From an uncultured Sphingosinicella sp. (GTDB lineage: Bacteria > Pseudomonadota > Alphaproteobacteria > Sphingomonadales > Sphingomonadaceae): a stretch of DNA of 43,059 nt. Of this stretch, positions 21,991-38,573 are shown piece after piece; positions within the stretch are counted from its first letter, which is position 1, and each line of letters opens with the position of its first letter. Where the stretch lies: contig NZ_CADCWD010000079.1 in NCBI RefSeq assembly GCF_902806315.1, positions 1 to 43,059 of the forward strand, given 5' to 3'. The notes below the pieces were generated by a model. It did no database searches. It saw nothing but the letters and a program-made list of their open reading frames with translations, and had not been told where the DNA came from. A program made the translations under genes and the position numbers.

Positions 21991-22584
21991 TCATGCCCTC
22001 AACATCCCCCTCGTTCGAAGAAAGCTGAGCAGAGGCAGAAGCGGCAAGCCTTGCACCGCAAAGTGACTCCCCTCGATGCGTTCGAAAAGCTGCGCTCCCA
22101 TCCCCTCCACATGGTAGCCGCCGACACTCCAGCGCACCGTTTCGTACTGCCGCTCGACATAGTCCTGCAGAAATCCGGTGCCGAGCGATCGCACATGCAT
22201 CGCTACAGTTTCGGTGGCGCTCCAGACCGGCTGGCCGCCTTCCACGACAACCGCGGCAGAATGGAGCCTGTGCGACCCGCCGCTAAGCCGCCCGAGCTGC
22301 TCCACCAGCTCCTCGCGTGAAGCAGGCTTGTCGAGCATCGAGCCGTCATCGAGCTCGAGCGTCTGATCAGAGCCAAGCACGAGATCGTTGTCAGCAGCAG
22401 TTACTGCCAGCGCCTTTGCTCGGGCGAGGCTCACCGCAAGTTCCGCATCGCGGACACCCCGGGCACGAAGCGACGCCTTGACGTCATTCTCCTCGATCTT
22501 CGCGTCTACCACCTGGAACGGCACCCCCGCCGCCTCGAGCATGTGGCGGCGCGCAGCGCTCCTGGACGCGAGCAGGAGCCTCAC
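21991..22584 (-). CDS. maf: Maf family nucleoside triphosphate pyrophosphatase
   Basis: The protein has 197 residues. Maf proteins hydrolyse non-canonical or specific NTPs to NMP and PPi and have been linked to septum control in Bacillus. The N-terminal LLLASRSAARRHMLEAAGVPF, then LGSDQTL and DKPASREELVEQLGRLSGGSHRLHSA are the conserved blocks; the usual nucleotide-contact residues S-R-S and K are present. Substrate preference is not decided here. The start overlaps the ppsR stop by four bases, so it is translationally coupled to it. Confidence 0.92.
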   Translation of the reverse strand: MRLLLASRSAARRHMLEAAGVPFQVVDAKIEENDVKASLRARGVRDAELAVSLARAKALAVTAADNDLVLGSDQTLELDDGSMLDKPASREELVEQLGRLSGGSHRLHSAAVVVEGGQPVWSATETVAMHVRSLGTGFLQDYVERQYETVRWSVGGYHVEGMGAQLFERIEGSHFAVQGLPLLPLLSFLRTRGMLRA

Positions 22585-23402
22585 GCCTCTGCCGCGTCCG
22601 ATCGCTCGCTACAGAGCTTGACGATCGCCGCGGCGGTTTCCTCGATCGAGCGGCGGGTGACGTCGATGACAGGCCAGTCATTGTCCGCGAACAGCCGCCG
22701 GGCATAAGCCAGCTCTGCATTCACCGCCTCGAGGTCCACATAGTCGGTCTCCGGCGCCTGGTTCAGCGAAAGGAGACGGTTGCGGCGTATCTGGATCAGG
22801 CGATCGGGGTTGGTGGTGAGGCCGACGACCATCGGGTGCTTCAGCGAAAAAAGTGTCGGCGGCGGCGGCGCTTCCGGCACCAGCGGGATGTTGGCGACCT
22901 TGAAGCCGCGATTGGCGAGATAGATGGACGTCGGCGTCTTGGAGGTGCGCGACACGCCCGCCAGGACCACGTCGGCCTCCTCCCAATTGTCGGAACCCAC
23001 GCCATCGTCATGAGCGATCGTGAACTGGATGGCGTCGACACGAGCGAAATAAGCGGCGTCCAGCGCATGCTGGCGGCCCGGCCGCGCCTTGGCCTCCTGG
23101 CCCAGAACGGCGGACAAGGCATCCACGACCGGATCCAGCGCCGACACAGCGTTGATACCCCGCCGCCTGCACTTCTGCTCGAGCTCGCGTCGGATATTGC
23201 TGTTCACCAACGTGTAGAGAACGAGCCCCGGCCGGCGCTCGATATCGTCGAGCACGCGATCGAGATGCCCTTCCGATCGAACCATTGGCCAGAGGTGCCG
23301 CACCGCCTCGACATCGTCGAACTGGGCAAGGCAGGACTTCGCGATGACCTCCAGCGTCTCCCCGGTGGAATCGGACAGCAAATGAAGATGGAGGCGACTC
23401 AC
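22581..23402 (-). CDS. ppsR: Pyruvate, phosphate dikinase/PEP synthase regulatory protein (DUF299)
   Basis: This bifunctional ADP-dependent kinase and phosphorylase switches PEP synthase or pyruvate phosphate dikinase off and on by threonine phosphorylation. It has 273 residues, with LHLLSDSTGETLEVIAKSCL at the N-terminus and the P-loop-like GVSRTSKTPTSIYLANRGFK at about residues 148-167, both diagnostic for DUF299. Whether the target is the synthase or the dikinase is not decided here. It is the first gene left of the proposed replication origin, transcribed away from it, and is divergent from hemE as in Caulobacter and Rickettsia. Confidence 0.93.
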   Translation of the reverse strand: MSRLHLHLLSDSTGETLEVIAKSCLAQFDDVEAVRHLWPMVRSEGHLDRVLDDIERRPGLVLYTLVNSNIRRELEQKCRRRGINAVSALDPVVDALSAVLGQEAKARPGRQHALDAAYFARVDAIQFTIAHDDGVGSDNWEEADVVLAGVSRTSKTPTSIYLANRGFKVANIPLVPEAPPPPTLFSLKHPMVVGLTTNPDRLIQIRRNRLLSLNQAPETDYVDLEAVNAELAYARRLFADNDWPVIDVTRRSIEETAAAIVKLCSERSDAAEA

Positions 23403-23442
23403 GACTGATCCTGGAAAGAGACCGGTCTGGTCCGAAATGCCC

Positions 23443-23451
23443 TGTGGAAAA
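23443..23451 (-). promoter_or_regulatory. DnaA-box-like site (TTTTCCACA)
   Basis: TGTGGAAAA on the plus strand reads TTTTCCACA on the minus strand, one mismatch from TTATCCACA. Confidence 0.55.
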
Positions 23452-23521
23452 CCATGGGGAAATCGCTAGCGGAACCCTTGGGAGCGATTCAAGAAAAGCT
23501 TTCCTCCCCGTTCTTCGAATT

Positions 23522-23530
23522 CGATCCACA
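23522..23530 (+). promoter_or_regulatory. DnaA-box-like site (CGATCCACA)
   Basis: CGATCCACA keeps the ATCCACA core of the DnaA box with two mismatches at the 5' end. Confidence 0.45.
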
Positions 23531-23565
23531 GTTTGACAAAGAGTGAAAAGGTTCCTGGTCTCGCC

Positions 23566-23574
23566 TGTGGATTG
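23566..23574 (-). promoter_or_regulatory. DnaA-box-like site (CAATCCACA)
   Basis: TGTGGATTG reads CAATCCACA on the minus strand, again with the ATCCACA core and two mismatches. Confidence 0.5.
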
Positions 23575-23590
23575 CGGGGAAAAGTCTTCC

Positions 23591-23599
23591 GAATCCACG
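23591..23599 (+). promoter_or_regulatory. Weak DnaA-box-like site (GAATCCACG)
   Basis: GAATCCACG keeps ATCCAC with three mismatches overall. It also contains a GANTC site (GAATC). Weak by itself; counted because of the cluster. Confidence 0.25.
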
Positions 23600-23684
23600 G
23601 GCCGCCGTGGGCCCCTTCAAGTCAAGCTGTTTGCAAAAAGGGGCGGAGGGAATAAACCCCGCCAATCGACGGCCTACTACCTTC

Positions 23685-23723
23685 AACAGACTCTTCTCTA
23701 ATAAGACTCTATAGATAAGAGAG
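23685..23723. repeat. AT-rich segment with short direct repeats, possible unwinding element
   Basis: AGACTCT occurs at 23688-23694 and 23704-23710, and ATAAGA at 23701-23706 and 23715-23720. The segment is much richer in AT than the surroundings. It could be the DNA unwinding element of the origin, the hemE promoter, or both. Confidence 0.4.
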
Positions 23724-23742
23724 CGGGGACCAGACGACTTTC

Positions 23743-24768
23743 ATGCCCGGCCCGGACAAGCCCCTGCTCAGCGTGCTTCGCGGGCAAAAAGCCGAGAAAA
23801 CTCCCATTTGGCTGATGCGTCAGGCAGGGCGCTACCTGCCTGAATATCGTGCGCTCCGGGCCGAGAAGGGCGGCTTCCTGAACCTGGTCTACGACCCCGA
23901 TGCCGCGGCCGAAATCACGCTTCAGCCGATCCGCAGGTTCGGCTTCGATGGGGCCATATTGTTCTCTGATATCCTGATCGTACCCTATGCGCTGGGTCAG
24001 GACCTGCGTTTCGAGGCCGGCGAGGGTCCGCGACTCTCGCCACCGCTGGTGGATGCCGCCCTGGCCGGCCTGGAGGCCGTACCAGGCCGTCTAGAGCCCA
24101 TCTACAGGACGGTGGATAAGGTGAAGGCGGCTTTGCCCCCTAAGACCACCTTCCTGGGCTTTGCGGGCAGCCCATGGACCGTCGCGACCTACATGGTGGC
24201 GGGCCAGGGCAGCAAGGAACAGGCCGAAGCGCGGCGCTACGCTTATCGCGATCCGGTCGCCTTTCAGGAGATCCTCGACGCCATCGCTTCGATGACGGTC
24301 GATTACCTCTCCGGGCAGGTGCGCGCCGGCGTGGAAGCGGTGCAACTGTTCGACAGTTGGGCTGGGAGCCTTTCGCCTCAGCAATTCGAGCAATGGGTAG
24401 TCGCGCCCAATGCGCGCATCGTGTCCGACTTCAAGAGCCGCCACCCCGACGTGCCGGTGATCGGCTTTCCCAAAGGCGCGGGCGGCAAGCTTGCGGCTTA
24501 TGCGCGCGGCGTGGGGGTGGACGCGATCGGGCTCGACGAGACGGTGGACCCCGCCTGGGCCGCGGCCGAACTTCCAGACGGTCTCCCCGTGCAGGGCAAT
24601 CTCGATCCCCTGGCCCTCATCGCCGGCGGCGCTGCGCTTGAATCCGCAGTCGCCCGCATCATATCCGCGTTCGGGGAGCGTCCGCACATCTTCAATCTTG
24701 GCCACGGCATCTTGCAGGACACGCCGATCGCGCATGTTGAGCAGCTGCTGAAGCTGGTGCGGCAATGA
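23743..24768 (+). CDS. hemE: Uroporphyrinogen decarboxylase
   Basis: The enzyme removes four carboxyl groups from uroporphyrinogen III to give coproporphyrinogen III in haem synthesis. It has 341 residues, a normal length. The substrate-binding WLMRQAGRYLPEYRALR near the N-terminus, FDGAILFSDILIVPYALG and FAGSPWTVATYMV are conserved family blocks. The ATG at 23743 begins directly after the AT-rich part of the proposed origin. It is translationally coupled to hemJ by a four-base overlap, so two haem enzymes are made together at the origin. Confidence 0.97.
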   Translation: MPGPDKPLLSVLRGQKAEKTPIWLMRQAGRYLPEYRALRAEKGGFLNLVYDPDAAAEITLQPIRRFGFDGAILFSDILIVPYALGQDLRFEAGEGPRLSPPLVDAALAGLEAVPGRLEPIYRTVDKVKAALPPKTTFLGFAGSPWTVATYMVAGQGSKEQAEARRYAYRDPVAFQEILDAIASMTVDYLSGQVRAGVEAVQLFDSWAGSLSPQQFEQWVVAPNARIVSDFKSRHPDVPVIGFPKGAGGKLAAYARGVGVDAIGLDETVDPAWAAAELPDGLPVQGNLDPLALIAGGAALESAVARIISAFGERPHIFNLGHGILQDTPIAHVEQLLKLVRQ

Positions 24769-27402: not shown

Positions 27403-28383
27403 TCACGGGATCAGGATGGTGGAACCGGTCGTCTGCCGCGCCTCGAGCGCGCGGTGGGCATCGGCGGCCTCCAGCAGAGCATGTTGTGCGCCGATCCTCA
27501 CCTGGATGGCGCCACTCCCAATCATATCGAACAGCCTTGCTGCCGATGCCCGCATCGCTTCGGCCGTGTCTATATAATCGAACAGCGTTGGGCGGGTGAC
27601 AAAGATCGAGCCCGCGCGCAGCAGGTCGAGCGCGGTGAAGGCCGGCACCGGGCCCGATGCATTGCCGTACGTGACGATCAGCCCCTTGCGCGCCACCGAG
27701 CCGAGTGAGGCGTCCCAGCTTGCGGCGCCTACGCCGTCCAGCACCACTGACACGCCCTTGCCGTCGGTGAGGGTTCGCACCTGTCCTGCCAACTCGTCCA
27801 TTGGGCAGCTGAGCGCGTGGTCCGCGCCGAGTTCTCCCGCCAGCTCCGCCTTCTTGCCGGTGCCGGCATGAGCGATGACGATCGCGCCGATCGCCTTTAG
27901 CCAAGGGACCAAGATAGAACCCACGCCGCCCGCGGCGGCATGCACGAGCACCGTCTCTCCCGCTTCGATCCTGGCGCAGCGCTCGATCAGGAACTCGGCC
28001 GTGCAGCCCTTCAACATGACGGCGGCCGCAGCTTCGCTGCTGACCTCCTCCGAAAGTTTCACAACCCGCTCTGCGTCGATCACCCGGTGCGTCGCGTAGG
28101 AACCCAGCGGGCCCGAGAAATAACCGACGCGGTTCCCCACCTGAACGCCGTCCACACCGGACCCGACCCCCTCCACCACTCCGGCCGCTTCGTTGCCCAA
28201 CCCCGACGGTAGCGGCAGCGGGTACAATCCGGATCGGTGATAAGTGTCGATGAAGTTGAGCCCGACTGCTTCGTGACGGATCAGCAATTCGCCCTCGCCC
28301 GGAGCGGGTACGTCGATCATCTCAGCTTCGAGGACTTCCGGGCCGCCAGTCCGCCGAAGAATGAAGCGGTAAGGATCGGTCAC
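27403..28383 (-). CDS. Quinone oxidoreductase, MDR superfamily
   Basis: The protein has 326 residues of the zinc-free medium-chain dehydrogenase/reductase type. An N-terminal GroES-like domain (GEGELLIRHEAVGLNFIDTYHRSG) is followed by an NADPH-binding Rossmann fold with AAAGGVGS at about residue 150. The lack of the zinc-ligand motifs of alcohol dehydrogenases favours an NADPH:quinone reductase (qor-like). The substrate is not known. It lies on the minus strand, head-on to the rightward fork and facing the terC-like gene; only three bases separate their ends. It is divergent from the small membrane protein at 28468. Confidence 0.9.
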   Translation of the reverse strand: MTDPYRFILRRTGGPEVLEAEMIDVPAPGEGELLIRHEAVGLNFIDTYHRSGLYPLPLPSGLGNEAAGVVEGVGSGVDGVQVGNRVGYFSGPLGSYATHRVIDAERVVKLSEEVSSEAAAAVMLKGCTAEFLIERCARIEAGETVLVHAAAGGVGSILVPWLKAIGAIVIAHAGTGKKAELAGELGADHALSCPMDELAGQVRTLTDGKGVSVVLDGVGAASWDASLGSVARKGLIVTYGNASGPVPAFTALDLLRAGSIFVTRPTLFDYIDTAEAMRASAARLFDMIGSGAIQVRIGAQHALLEAADAHRALEARQTTGSTILIP

Positions 28384-28467
28384 AGACTGCTCCCGCGAAA
28401 CTGGCTGAGGCTTTCAATGCGTCCGCGTCGGCTGCTAAGCTTTGTGCGACAGAGGAGACCTACCATC

Positions 28468-28668
28468 GTGACCAGCAAATTATCAACGGGCACCGTCCTA
28501 CTTCCGGTCGGAATCTCACTCGTCGTCCTTGGCAATATCGTCGGGCGCAGCGAAGCCGAAGTGCTTGGTCTGTCGTCCAGATTCTGGTCGGGCTTCATGA
28601 TTGGCATGGCCATCGTGGTCCTTCTGCTCTCCATCGTCCAGAACGCCCGAAAGAAGAAGCCGAGCTAG
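28468..28668 (+). CDS. Small membrane protein of unknown function (66 residues)
   Basis: The start is the GTG at 28468, about ten bases after AGGAG. The protein is 66 residues long, with two hydrophobic segments (TVLLPVGISLVVLGNIV and FWSGFMIGMAIVVLLLSIV) and a basic tail ending RKKKPS. The loop between them contains GRSEAEVLGLSSR. I do not recognise the family. The Shine-Dalgarno spacing and the two clean membrane segments make it a credible gene. It stands alone between a divergent oxidoreductase gene and the DUF6489 gene. Confidence 0.65.
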   Translation: MTSKLSTGTVLLPVGISLVVLGNIVGRSEAEVLGLSSRFWSGFMIGMAIVVLLLSIVQNARKKKPS

Positions 28669-28795
28669 GCCTCGCTTCGGCCCGCTGGAGCCGACCTCCC
28701 CGCGGCATCCCGATGACGTTGGGTTCCTCTCACCTTGCGGGGGCTGTCATAAGGATACACATTCGACGGCTGTAACCGCCGAGGATCGAGCCGAT

Positions 28796-30316: not shown

Positions 30317-30332
30317 TGTTCCACGTGAAACG
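30317..30332 (+). promoter_or_regulatory. parS-like site 1 (TGTTCCACGTGAAACG)
   Basis: This matches the ParB-binding consensus TGTTTCACGTGAAACA at 14 of 16 positions. It lies in the 74-base gap between mnmE and mnmG, about 6.6 kb from the proposed origin and 3.3 kb from parB. It shares TCCACGTGAAAC with the sites at 32288 and 36162. Confidence 0.85.
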
Positions 30333-32243: not shown

Positions 32244-32888
32244 ATGGAAGAAGCCAAAGCCCGCTTATGGCTGGAGCAGGAGCTCGGCGTTCCACGTGAA
32301 ACAATGGAGCGACTCGGCGCTTTCGTGGAACTTCTCAGACGAGAGAATGAGGTGCAGAACCTCGTCTCCAAAATCACGCTCGATCAGATCTGGACGAGGC
32401 ACATCGTAGACTCCGCGCAACTGCTCCGCCTCGCCTCGGGTGAGGGACCACGCTGGCTGGATCTCGGCACCGGCGCCGGCTTTCCAGGATTGGTGATCGC
32501 CCTTCTATATGGGGGCGAGGTCACGATGGTGGAGGCGAGAAGGCTCCGGGTCGATTTCCTTTCTCGTGCCGCTCAAGTGCTCCAGCTTCAGCCGTCCACC
32601 CAAATTCTTTGTGCAAAGGTCGAGCGGCTCGAAGAAGTGTCTTTCGGCGTCATCAGCGCCCGCGCCTTCGCACCTCTCGACCGACTCCTCAGCCTTGGTG
32701 AACGGTTCGCCTCACCGGAGACTCGCTGGGTCTTGCCAAAGGGCCGAAACGCCAAGTCGGAGCTAGAAGATGCGCGCGCTTCATGGCAGGGTGATTTCCG
32801 TCTCGAACAGAGCCTCACCGACCCCGATGCGTGGATCATCGTCGCTGAGAATGTTCGGCGCAGGGTGAAAGGGAAGCGGGGGAAATGA
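32244..32888 (+). CDS. rsmG: 16S rRNA (guanine-527-N7)-methyltransferase RsmG
   Basis: RsmG (GidB) methylates G527 of 16S rRNA with S-adenosylmethionine; its loss can cause low-level streptomycin resistance in other bacteria. It has 214 residues, with the SAM-binding segment RWLDLGTGAGFPGLVIALL at about residues 70-88. The codons for GVPRETM near the N-terminus contain a parS-like site (32288-32303). ATG 32244 directly follows the mnmG stop, and the gene end overlaps parA by four bases. Confidence 0.95.
   Translation: MEEAKARLWLEQELGVPRETMERLGAFVELLRRENEVQNLVSKITLDQIWTRHIVDSAQLLRLASGEGPRWLDLGTGAGFPGLVIALLYGGEVTMVEARRLRVDFLSRAAQVLQLQPSTQILCAKVERLEEVSFGVISARAFAPLDRLLSLGERFASPETRWVLPKGRNAKSELEDARASWQGDFRLEQSLTDPDAWIIVAENVRRRVKGKRGK
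32288..32303 (+). promoter_or_regulatory. parS-like site 2, inside rsmG
   Basis: CGTTCCACGTGAAACA matches the ParB consensus TGTTTCACGTGAAACA at 14 of 16 positions. It encodes residues of the GVPRETM segment of RsmG, so one sequence serves both the protein and chromosome segregation. Confidence 0.85.
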
Positions 32889-33657
32889 TCCGGATTGCAG
32901 TGGCCAATCAGAAGGGCGGCGTCGGCAAGACCACGACGGCGATCAATCTCGCCACCGCCCTTGCCGCGACCGGATGGCGCGTCCTCCTCATCGACCTCGA
33001 CCCTCAAGGAAATGCTTCGACCGGCCTCGGTGTCGCCCACTCGCAGCGGGAATATTCGAGCTACGAGCTGCTGACGGGTCAGTGCACCATGGAGCAAGCG
33101 GTCGTATCGACGCGAGTGCCGCGTCTCGATCTGGTGTCCGCAACCGTGGATCTCTCCGGCGCAGAGATTGAGCTCGTCGAGTTCGAGGATCGGACGCATC
33201 GCCTGGACAAGGTGGTGGCGGATAACGGCCGCTGGGACGTCTGCCTGATCGACTGCCCGCCGTCGCTTGGCCTGCTGACGATCAATGCGCTCGTCGCATC
33301 GCGTTCCGTCCTCGTCCCGCTCCAGGCGGAATTCTTCGCGTTGGAGGGGCTCAGCCAGTTGCTGCAAACGGTTGAGCGGATCCGGGTTCGCTTCAACCCG
33401 GAGCTTTCCATTCTGGGCGTGGCGCTGACGATGTTCGATCGCCGCAACAATCTCTCCTCGCAAGTCGCGGACGATGTTCGCGCCTGCCTCGGCAAGGTCG
33501 TGTTCCAGACGGTCATTCCGCGGAACGTGCGCCTGTCCGAGGCCCCCAGCCACGGCGTTCCCGCATTGATTTACGACCACCGTTGTTCCGGATCGGAGGC
33601 TTACATGTCGCTTGCGCGTGAACTGATCGGGCGGCTGCCCAAGCCGGCGGCTGCGGC

Positions 33658-33661
<4 letters not shown>
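32885..33661 (+). CDS. parA: Chromosome partitioning ATPase ParA
   Basis: ParA is a Walker-type ATPase that binds DNA non-specifically and moves ParB-parS complexes to separate newly copied origins. It has 258 residues. The deviant Walker A KGGVGKTTT is at residues 10-18, followed by LLIDLDPQGNASTGLG and the Walker B segment VCLIDCPPSLGLLTINAL. The absence of an N-terminal DNA-binding domain indicates a chromosomal (Ib-like) ParA. Overlaps of four bases with rsmG and parB show tight coupling in the mnmG-rsmG-parA-parB operon. Confidence 0.96.
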
Positions 33662-34539
<878 letters not shown>

Positions 34540-36057: not shown

Positions 36058-38573
36058 GCGACCAGGTTTACCAGGCGATCGGGAACGACGATGACCTTCC
36101 GCGGGCTCTTTCCTTCGAGGATCTTGACGACCTTCTCGGACGAGAGCGCCATTTCCTGGAGTGTTTCACGTGGAGCACCCTTGGGCGCGGTCAGCGTGTC
36201 CCTCAGCTTGCCATTGACCTGAACCGCGATGGTGACTTCATCCTCCACCAGAAGTGCCGGATCGGCTTCGGGCCAGGACGCGTCAGCAGCCAGGCCTGTC
36301 TTCCCAGCGGCGCTCCATGCCTCCTCGGCAACGTGAGGCACCATCGGCGAGACGAGCAGCAGCAGGGCTTCGGCCGCTGTGGAGCGAGACCGTGAAGGCG
36401 GCGCCTTCTCAATAGCGGTAGCGAGCTCGTAGATGTTGGCCACCGCCTTGTTGAAGGCGAGCGCCTCGATATTCGCGCCGACCGCGGCGATGGTCTGGTG
36501 GAGCTTTCGGTCGAGCGCCCGGTCCTCGCCCTCTCCCGCAGCGTGCTCCTGGGAGAGCCGCCACAGTCGCTGCACGAAGCGCCATGAACCTTCGATCCCG
36601 GCCTCGCTCCACGGCAGGTCCCGCTCCGGCGGGCTGTCGGAAAGCATGAACCAGCGCACCGCATCGGCGCCATACTGGTCGACGATCGGCTCGGGATCGA
36701 CCGTGTTCTTCTTCGACTTGGACATCTTCTCGACCCGCCCGGGGGTCACCGGCTGCCCGTTCTCGATGTGGACCCAGTCGTCGCCGTCCCGCTTGACCTC
36801 GTCGGGGCTGAGCCAGCTTCCGTCGCCAGCCTTATAGGTCTCGTGCGTCACCATGCCCTGCGTGAACAGGCCTTGGAACGGCTCCTCGACGTCGAGCCGC
36901 CCAATCCGCTTCAGCGCGCGCGTCCAGAAGCGCGCGTAAAGGAGGTGCAGGATCGCATGCTCGACACCCCCGATATATTGGCCGACCGGCAGCCAGCTTT
37001 CCGCATCCGTCTTGTCGAACGGCCGGTCTCCGGGCTGGCTTGCGAAACGGATGAAATACCAGCTTGAGTCCACGAATGTGTCGAGCGTGTCGGTCTCCCT
37101 GCGCGCCGCCGCGCCGCAGCGCGGGCAGTCGACTTTCGTCCAGCTCGCGTGACGATCAAGCGGGTTGCCGGGCTGGTCGAAGCTGACATCCTCCGGAAGC
37201 ACGACTGGCAACTGCTCCTTCGGCACGGCCACTGGACCGCAGCTCTCGCAATGGATGATCGGGATCGGTGTCCCCCAGTAACGCTGGCGCGAAACGCCCC
37301 AGTCGCGCAGCCGCCAGACCGTGGTTCCCTGCCCCCAGCCTTCCGCTTCCGCGCGGGCGATCACCGCCGCCTTTGCGCCCTCCACGTCCATGCCGTCGAG
37401 GAAGCCCGAATTGACGATCACGCCGCCGCCGCTCTCGGCCTCGTTCGCGATCGGCTTGTCCGCCTCGTCGAGCGACGACGCGACGACGCGGTTGATCGGC
37501 AGCCCGTATTTGCTGGCGAACTCGAAGTCACGCTGGTCGTGGCCGGGCACGCCGAAGGTGGCGCCGGTGCCGTAATCCATGAGAACGAAGTTGGCGATGT
37601 AGAGCGGCAGCTTCCACTCGGCATCAAGCGGATGGAGAACCTTGAGGCCGGTGTCGAAGCCCTTCTTCTCGGCGGTCTCCAGCTCGGCCGCGGTGGTCCC
37701 GCCTCGCTTGCAGTCGGCGATGAACTCGGCGACTTCGGGTTGGGCTTCGGCAAGTTCCAGCGCGATCGGATGATCGGGCGAAACGGCAACAAAGCTGGAG
37801 CCGAAGATCGTATCGGGCCGGGTCGTGAAGACCTCCAGCTTGGTCAGCCCCGCCGCAGGCTGCTCCAGCCGGAAGCTGAAGCGCATACCGACACTCTTGC
37901 CGATCCAGTTCTCCTGCATCAGCCGCACCTTGTCGGGCCACTGGTCGAGCGTGCCGAGGCCCTCGAGCAGCTCCTCGGCGAAATCGGTAATCTTCAGGAA
38001 CCACTGGCTGAGCTTGCGCCGCTCGACCAATGCACCCGATCGCCAGCCGCGGCCGTCGATCACCTGCTCGTTGGCGAGCACGGTCATGTCGACGGGATCC
38101 CAGTTCACTTCGCTCTGCTTGCGGTAGACCAGGCCCGCTTCATACAGATCGAGGAACAGCGCCTGCTCATGCCCATAATAATCGGGCTCGCAGGTGGCGA
38201 GCTCGCGACTCCAGTCGAGCGCGAAGCCCAGGCGCTTCAGCTGCGCTTTCATCGTGGCGATGTTCTCGCGGGTCCATTCGCCGGGATGGACTTTCTTCTC
38301 CATCGCCGCATTCTCGGCCGGCATCCCGAAGGCGTCCCAGCCCATCGGGTGGAGCACTTCGAAGCCCTTCATCCGCCGGTAGCGGGCAAGCACGTCGCCC
38401 ATCGTATAGTTGCGGACATGGCCCATGTGGATGCGCCCCGACGGATAGGGGAACATCTCCAGGACGTAGCTCTTGGGCTTCGAGCTGTCGTTGGAGGCGT
38501 GGAAAGTCCCACGCTCCTCCCAGAGCTCCTGCCACCGCGCATCGGCCGCGAGCGGGTTGAATCGCGACGCCAT
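36054..38573 (-). CDS. leuS: Leucine--tRNA ligase
   Basis: Leucyl-tRNA synthetase is a class I enzyme with an editing domain. It has 839 residues. The HIGH-type motif is HMGH ([18 protein letters not shown]) near residue 50, and the KMSKS motif reads [15 protein letters not shown]. The inserted CP1 editing domain (about residues 225-420) contains the threonine-rich segment [22 protein letters not shown] parS-like site lies inside its 3' part (36162-36177). The gene is on the minus strand, head-on to the rightward replication fork, and follows a DUF3576 lipoprotein gene by 11 bases. Confidence 0.97.
36162..36177 (-). promoter_or_regulatory. parS-like site 3, inside leuS
   Basis: On the minus strand the sequence reads TGCTCCACGTGAAACA. 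It matches the ParB consensus at 14 of 16 positions and has the same TCCACGTGAAAC core as the sites at 30317 and 32288. It lies within the leuS coding region near the 3' end. Confidence 0.8.

What the first reader, a model, noticed from the sequence alone, without database searches (positions are those of the whole stretch)
23403..23742. Probable chromosomal replication origin between ppsR and hemE
The sequence shows the longest non-coding gap in the window, four near-matches to the DnaA box in 160 bases (sharing ATCCAC or TTCCACA), an AT-rich stretch with short repeats, and a switch of transcription direction. Known biology: in Caulobacter and Rickettsia the origin lies beside hemE with the same neighbours. 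The step from these to an active origin is inference.
Basis: partly seen in the sequence, partly recalled or inferred. Interest (0 to 1): 0.75.

Follow-up and report, generated by a model that had tools for sequence, protein, structure and literature searches.

The report
Sphingomonad chromosome replication origin beside hemE
The short gap between ppsR and hemE is very probably where this sphingomonad starts copying its chromosome: an ordinary alphaproteobacterial type of origin, with the unusual detail that one DNA-methylation site in it is kept in all 26 congeners aligned.

Summary
The reading holds: 23403-23742 is very probably the chromosomal origin (oriC). The window's own GC skew does not show it and the genome is in 97 contigs, so relatives were tested. 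In three single-contig congeners sampled GC skew switches sign near hemE (best fits 5-122 kb away) and has the wrong sign at dnaA. In six congeners a dif-like site lies 94-99% of the way to the antipode of hemE, but 10-41% from dnaA. parS lies 4.6-9.4 kb beyond the hemE start in 12 congeners. Aligning 26 congeners resolves three DnaA-box positions, promoter-like pairs facing ppsR and hemE, an AT-rich stretch and GANTC (CcrM) sites. Genus gaps hold four times the GANTC expected from composition. Exact CtrA boxes are absent. The location was already predicted for most Sphingomonadaceae (PMC4741004): a new member of a known kind; the fixed methylation site is the added detail. No replication experiment supports it yet.

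The parts
23403..23742 (.). Predicted oriC: gap between ppsR and hemE
   Evidence: 340 bp, 47.6% A+T against 34.7% for the window; same neighbours in 57 of 60 genomes and 74 of 80 named loci
22581..23402 (-). ppsR (COG1806/DUF299), left flank gene
   Evidence: NF003742 2.5e-101
23743..24768 (+). hemE, right flank gene
   Evidence: TIGR01464 5.3e-118
23443..23451 (-). DnaA box 1, TTTTCCACA
   Evidence: only exact match in the window; TGTGGAAAA or TGTGGATAA in 25 of 26 congeners, own included
23465..23470 (-). Putative ppsR -10 element (GCTAGC)
   Evidence: GCTA invariant in 26 of 26, no indel to the -35 part; inferred, the pair is not rare in genomes
23488..23493 (-). Putative ppsR -35 element (CTTGAA)
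   Evidence: CAAG on + strand invariant in 26 of 26; inferred
23522..23530 (+). DnaA box 2, CGATCCACA, resembling the Caulobacter G-box
   Evidence: CCACA invariant in 26 of 26
23566..23574 (-). DnaA box 3, CAATCCACA
   Evidence: TGTG on + strand invariant in 26 of 26
23576..23580 (-). TCCCC element beside box 3, resembling the Caulobacter W-box (W-box letters recalled)
   Evidence: GGGGA on + strand invariant in 26 of 26
23591..23595 (.).
   Evidence: GAATC 17, GACTC 9; about 5 changes at N, none at G, A, T, C
23630..23635 (+). Putative hemE -35 element (TTTGCA)
   Evidence: TGTTKGCAA in 26 of 26; with the -10 part once per genus genome
23652..23657 (+). Putative hemE -10 element (ATAAAC)
   Evidence: fixed 16-bp spacing from the -35 part in 26 of 26; inferred
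23680..23724 (.). AT-rich stretch, putative duplex unwinding element
   Evidence: 58% A+T at 23661-23720; role by analogy
23689..23693 (.). GANTC site in the AT-rich stretch
   Evidence: 19 of 26
23705..23709 (.). GANTC site in the AT-rich stretch
   Evidence: 12 of 26
23486..23490 (.). GANTC site, poorly conserved
   Evidence: 4 of 26
30317..30332 (+). parS-like site between mnmE and mnmG, 1 mismatch
32288..32303 (+). parS-like site in rsmG, 1 mismatch, 1971 bp from the first
   Evidence: exact pairs in 11 congeners are 1908-1982 bp apart
36162..36177 (+). Third parS-like site, in leuS, 1 mismatch
32885..34539 (+). parA and parB
   Evidence: ParA-family matches and parB_part 1.4e-59

Best explanation
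The gap is the chromosomal replication origin. DnaA binds the exact box at 23443 and two weaker boxes of opposite orientation (23522 +, 23566 -), assembles towards hemE and opens the AT-rich stretch at about 23680-23724, where helicase is loaded; forks leave in both directions, and the par genes and parS-like sites about 7-11 kb to the right segregate the new origins. Two promoters flank it: one firing left into ppsR, one firing right through the AT-rich stretch into hemE, which could help opening. CcrM methylates GANTC sites in it, so the origin is hemimethylated after each initiation. Shown by sequence: boxes, promoter-like pairs, GANTC conservation, gene order, parS-like sites; in relatives, skew switch and dif-like site. 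Inferred: DnaA binding, unwinding, helicase loading, promoter activity, methylation here and any effect of it.
For: Skew sampled in G020, G010, G008: GC-skew difference at hemE 0.0202, 0.0169, 0.0238 (permutation p 0.003, 0.045, 0.0245), negative at dnaA in all three. dif-like site at 0.944-0.989 of the half contig from hemE in six congeners, 0.10-0.41 from dnaA. Exact parS in 54 of 60 genomes, 4.6-9.4 kb beyond the hemE start in the 12 congeners measured. DnaA-box positions conserved in 26 congeners; boxes enriched over shuffles at up to 2 mismatches. GANTC 137 in 26 genus gaps against 31.9 expected from base composition; controls GTNAC 8, CANTG 12, CTNAG 9. RAMA domain typical of CcrM in the own genome (G000:C33), GcrA (G000:C16). 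Prior prediction at hemE for most Sphingomonadaceae (PMC4741004, section read).
Against: The window's own cumulative GC skew has its minimum at 38377, not at the gap. TA skew alone is not significant in G010 (p 0.39) and G008 (p 0.10), and in G010 it is higher at dnaA (0.0097) than at hemE (0.0032). For the window's own gap, four GANTC are not more than dinucleotide shuffles give (mean 2.2, 182 of 1000 reach four). Family-level dif-like matches in G034 and G027 lie at only 0.78 and 0.76, and none was found in G016. Only one box is an exact match. The gap as a whole is only slightly more alike between congeners than ppsR third codon positions (0.626 against 0.587). Exact CtrA boxes and a full IHF consensus are absent. 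The sigma-70 consensus scan found no promoter.
Confidence: 0.93

Rival explanations
1. The gap is only a divergent promoter region for ppsR and hemE, with DnaA acting as transcription regulator; the origin lies elsewhere nearby.
For: Both sides carry conserved promoter-like pairs with fixed spacing; these account for two of the most conserved blocks. Skew sampling cannot exclude another site within about 100 kb.
Against: Promoters alone do not explain three conserved DnaA-box positions or why skew, parS and dif-like sites point here.
Confidence: 0.05
2. The origin is next to dnaA, as in many bacteria.
For: dnaA-linked origins are common (established knowledge). Outside the family dnaA can be near hemE: 0.04-0.05 of the half contig in G058 and G053. 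TA skew in G010 is higher at dnaA than at hemE.
Against: In the six congeners measured dnaA lies 0.62-0.95 of the half contig from hemE and 0.10-0.41 from the dif-like site; GC skew has the wrong sign at dnaA in all three sampled. PMC8116508 (passages) also reports dnaA not conserved near ori in Sphingomonadales.
Confidence: 0.01

Closest known systems
Caulobacter crescentus Cori
   Same: Lies between hemE and COG1806 (PMC1914354 passages); weak G- and W-type DnaA boxes and parS within 8 kb (PMC4468827 passages); GANTC motifs in the origin (PMC3973325 section 15).
   Different: No exact TTAA-N7-TTAA CtrA site in any of 57 gaps, whereas Cori has five; an exact-type DnaA box is kept here in 25 of 26 congeners.
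Predicted Sphingopyxis and other Sphingomonadaceae oriC (Ori-Finder, DoriC)
   Same: Beside hemE, with DnaA boxes and a putative DUE in the intergenic region (PMC4741004, section read).
   Different: That section does not mention GANTC sites, promoters or the terminus; the paper's supplementary alignment was not seen.
Wolbachia, Rickettsia and relatives' hemE-linked ori
   Same: hemE as boundary gene and DnaA boxes used as criteria (PMC1914354 passages).
   Different: Those are called with CtrA and IHF sites as well, which are not found here in full form.

Membership tests
hemE-type alphaproteobacterial chromosomal origin | Gap between hemE and COG1806/DUF299 (ppsR) | tested here: met
   Own window, 57 of 60 genomes, 74 of 80 named loci
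hemE-type alphaproteobacterial chromosomal origin | Several DnaA boxes | tested here: met
   1 exact and 6 with two mismatches against 1.8 in shuffles; three conserved positions
hemE-type alphaproteobacterial chromosomal origin | AT-rich stretch | tested here: met
   Gap 47.6% A+T against 34.7%; unwinding itself not testable
hemE-type alphaproteobacterial chromosomal origin | Chromosome skew switch at the site | tested here: met
   In three congeners for GC skew, sampling 14-24% of the contig; not testable in the own 97-contig genome, and not visible in the window alone
hemE-type alphaproteobacterial chromosomal origin | parABS close by | tested here: met
   parA, parB, parS-like sites, exact parS in 12 congeners measured
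hemE-type alphaproteobacterial chromosomal origin | Drives initiation in the cell | not testable with these tools
   Needs marker frequency or plasmid replication
Caulobacter-type CtrA-controlled origin (Cori sub-type) | CtrA boxes TTAA-N7-TTAA | tested here: not met
   0 exact in 57 gaps; no TTAA in the window gap; mismatched sites not searched
Caulobacter-type CtrA-controlled origin (Cori sub-type) | IHF site | tested here: inconclusive
   Full consensus in 0 of 26 genus, 0 of 9 family and 0 of 74 named gaps; core TCAANNNNTT in 25 of 26 genus and 38 of 74 named gaps

The most novel reading that the evidence does not exclude
In sphingomonads the methylation state of the conserved GANTC at 23591-23595, lying between the DnaA boxes and the hemE promoter, times re-initiation (a CcrM-based counterpart of Dam/SeqA control) in a lineage whose origin lacks exact CtrA boxes.
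Probability: 0.15. Interest if true: 0.7.

Novelty: new member of a known kind. Interest (0 to 1): 0.33.

Why it matters
It fixes the replication axis of this genus: in the six congeners measured dnaA, from which at least one record (G020) is numbered, lies in the terminus half of the chromosome. It gives a base-level map of a compact origin. The methylation site whose four letters are fixed while its free base drifts turns an open question, whether CcrM has any role in initiation, into a one-site test; in Caulobacter loss of CcrM did not change initiation control (PMC3973325, section 15 read).

Tried and rejected
GC skew of the window alone: no use, minimum at 38377. RNA families: none at gathering score. 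Conserved hairpin in the AT-rich stretch: single sequences fold, but the alignment gives no consensus structure, not claimed. DnaA-trio: lag-3 repetition (0.381) is hardly above lag 7 (0.373) and lag 4 (0.344) in the 26 segments, not claimed. CtrA control: no exact boxes. IHF: full consensus absent; my pattern for the GTCAAGCTGTT block was wrongly written and its counts for that block are void; done again. ORF 28237-28668 as a gene: no Pfam match; its inner 83 residues had no match in three relatives' samples. One pattern for the DnaA module misses 6 of 26 genus genomes and hits one unrelated place in G005. First dif pattern: no match in the nine genus and family genomes, four in the order; loosened. 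Literature searched for GANTC in sphingomonad origins: passages of PMC9836097 report a GANTC increase around ori in four alphaproteobacterial orders; I found no base-level description in what I read, which is not proof of absence.

Full report
What is there. The window is one whole contig (G000:C79) of a 2.69-Mb genome in 97 contigs. The hemE scan of named genomes returns mostly Sphingomonas and allied genera, besides MAGs with broad names, so it is a sphingomonad. Left of the gap dnaQ, coaE, maf and ppsR read away from it; right of it hemE, hemJ and rho, and further on mnmE, mnmG, rsmG, parA and parB read away in the other direction, with qor, holA and leuS opposed. The gap 23403-23742 is 340 bp.

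Is the observation more than chance. The exact box TTWTCCACA occurs once in 43 kb, in this gap. With up to two mismatches the gap has seven matches against 1.8 in dinucleotide shuffles (2 of 1000 reach seven); with up to one mismatch the gap is not unusual (173 of 1000). So the evidence from this one sequence is moderate. The comparative evidence is stronger: in an alignment of 26 congeners, own included, 67 of 258 core columns never change on a hemE tree, and they fall into short blocks. Mean pairwise identity over the whole gap is only 0.626 against 0.587 for third codon positions of ppsR: conserved blocks in a drifting background.

The blocks. (a) TGTGGAAAA or TGTGGATAA at 23443 in 25 of 26. 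(b) GCTA at 23465 and CAAG at 23490, with no indel between them in 26 of 26: on the minus strand CTTGAA, 17 bp, GCTAGC, which looks like an alphaproteobacterial housekeeping promoter (consensus recalled) for ppsR; such pairs are not rare (19 in 800 kb of G020), so this is inference. (c) CCACA of box 2 at 23526 and (d) TGTG of box 3 at 23566 followed by GGGGA at 23576, all invariant. (e) GANTC at 23591. (f) TGTTKGCAA, 15 bp, ATAARCCCC: exactly one match in each of the 26 genus genomes, each just upstream of hemE and each with the same spacing though 12-22 was allowed; one more match in the family (G035), none in the other 33 genomes or with the reversed control. In 38 of 74 named gaps TGTTKGC is found, and in 35 of these TAA stands at the same place. 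Two fixed words at fixed spacing with a free spacer suggest a promoter, here for hemE, reading through the AT-rich stretch. The generic sigma-70 scan found no promoter.

GANTC. The gaps of the 26 genus genomes hold 137 GANTC against 31.9 expected from base composition, nine other family members 47 against 11.5, and 22 gaps of other families of the order 48 against 32.4, of which 26 come from two genomes of one genus, G039 and G051. Patterns of the same make-up are few: GTNAC 8, CANTG 12, CTNAG 9 in the genus. Against this, the window's own four are not significant by dinucleotide shuffles (mean 2.2; 182 of 1000 reach four); shuffles were not run for the relatives. The 74 named gaps hold 347 against 95 expected, at least three in 67 of 74 and none without; named loci and G genomes may overlap. 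In the samples of G020, G010 and G008 the densest 340-bp stretch is at the origin (9, 7 and 6 sites; tied with one other place in G008). The site at 23591 is in 26 of 26; N is A in 17 and C in 9, about five changes on the tree, while its four fixed letters never change. Other columns: 23689 (19 of 26), 23619 (17 of 26, lost in this window), 23705 (12 of 26). The own genome has a RAMA domain, in the control genomes found only in Caulobacter, and GcrA (57 and 58 of 60 genomes); that the RAMA protein is CcrM is inferred. GANTC is methylated in Sphingomonas sp. AAP5 and in Zymomonas by long-read data (PMC8067484, PMC8088579; passages). Passages of PMC9836097 report a rise of GANTC around ori in four orders. 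That these sites serve GcrA-dependent transcription of hemE rather than replication is not excluded.

Is it the origin. The own genome cannot show a chromosome-wide skew. In G020, G010 and G008, sampled by 40, 20 and 20 stretches of 20 kb, the best GC-skew origin is 95, 122 and 5 kb from hemE; permutation p for hemE is 0.003, 0.045 and 0.0245; at dnaA the sign is reversed. TA skew agrees in G020 (p 0.011) but not significantly in G008 (0.10) or G010 (0.39), and in G010 it is higher at dnaA than at hemE. A dif-like sequence, found with a recalled consensus at three mismatches, is the same 22-mer, or one base off, in seven of eight congeners searched, none in G016; the reversed control hit once, in G001. 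In six it is on the contig of hemE at 0.944-0.989 of half its length, against 0.10-0.41 from dnaA; G001, G018 and G025 have more than one contig, so contig length stands for chromosome length. In G006 it is on another contig. Four single-contig genomes of other families give 0.925-0.987, and there dnaA is nearer hemE (0.04-0.23); the family members G032, G034 and G027 give 0.921, 0.780 and 0.763 with different sequences. Exact parS is in 54 of 60 genomes; in the 12 congeners measured it starts 4.6-9.4 kb beyond the hemE start, pairs 1908-1982 bp apart in 11 of them. This genome has no exact parS, but three single-mismatch sites at 30317, 32288 and 36162, the first two 1971 bp apart. Together these place the origin at or close to this gap; the DnaA boxes single out the gap itself.

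Compared with what is known. The hemE/COG1806 position is that of Cori and Rickettsia (PMC1914354 passages) and was predicted for most Sphingomonadaceae (PMC4741004, section read). That dnaA is not conserved near ori in Sphingomonadales is in print (PMC8116508 passages). What differs from Cori is the absence of exact CtrA boxes (0 in 57 gaps), in keeping with ctrA being dispensable in S. melonis, though the same passage says that an influence of CtrA on replication was shown there. I file it as a member of the hemE-type origins and not of the CtrA-controlled sub-type.

Verdict. The corrected detail, a CcrM-type site where a fourth DnaA box was read, is the part worth a bench test; in Caulobacter deletion of ccrM left initiation control unchanged, which speaks against a large effect.

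Noticed in passing
window 30317-30332, 32288-32303, 36162-36177: The own genome has no exact parS, only single-mismatch sites, two of them spaced like the exact pairs of congeners; G003 and G021 also have no exact site.
   Followed up: partly
L133 (G051) and L135 (G039), gap before hemE: These two genomes of one genus in another family carry 13 GANTC each in a gap of about 470 bp, while family mates G045 and G056 have 1 and 0.
   Followed up: no
window 28384-28795: 412 bp between qor and a DUF6489 match with only unsupported ORFs, one of them a possible small membrane protein; may be longer than the origin gap.
   Followed up: partly
G048 contig C1, end: hemE starts about 0.5 kb from the end of this single-contig record, so the record may have been opened at the predicted origin.
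   Followed up: no
G020:C1:254605, G010:C1:2471883, G008:C1:691080 and four more congeners: A 22-bp dif-like sequence, CCGATAATATACATTATGTAAA or one base off, occurs once in each of seven congeners.
   Followed up: partly
L186, L187, L195, L204, L212: In these Novosphingobium/Erythrobacter-like gaps an extra NWTCCACAG-type box stands directly before the AT-rich stretch, where the window's genus has none, and ATAAACCACGGGA or a close form stands where the genus has GCTAGC.
   Followed up: no
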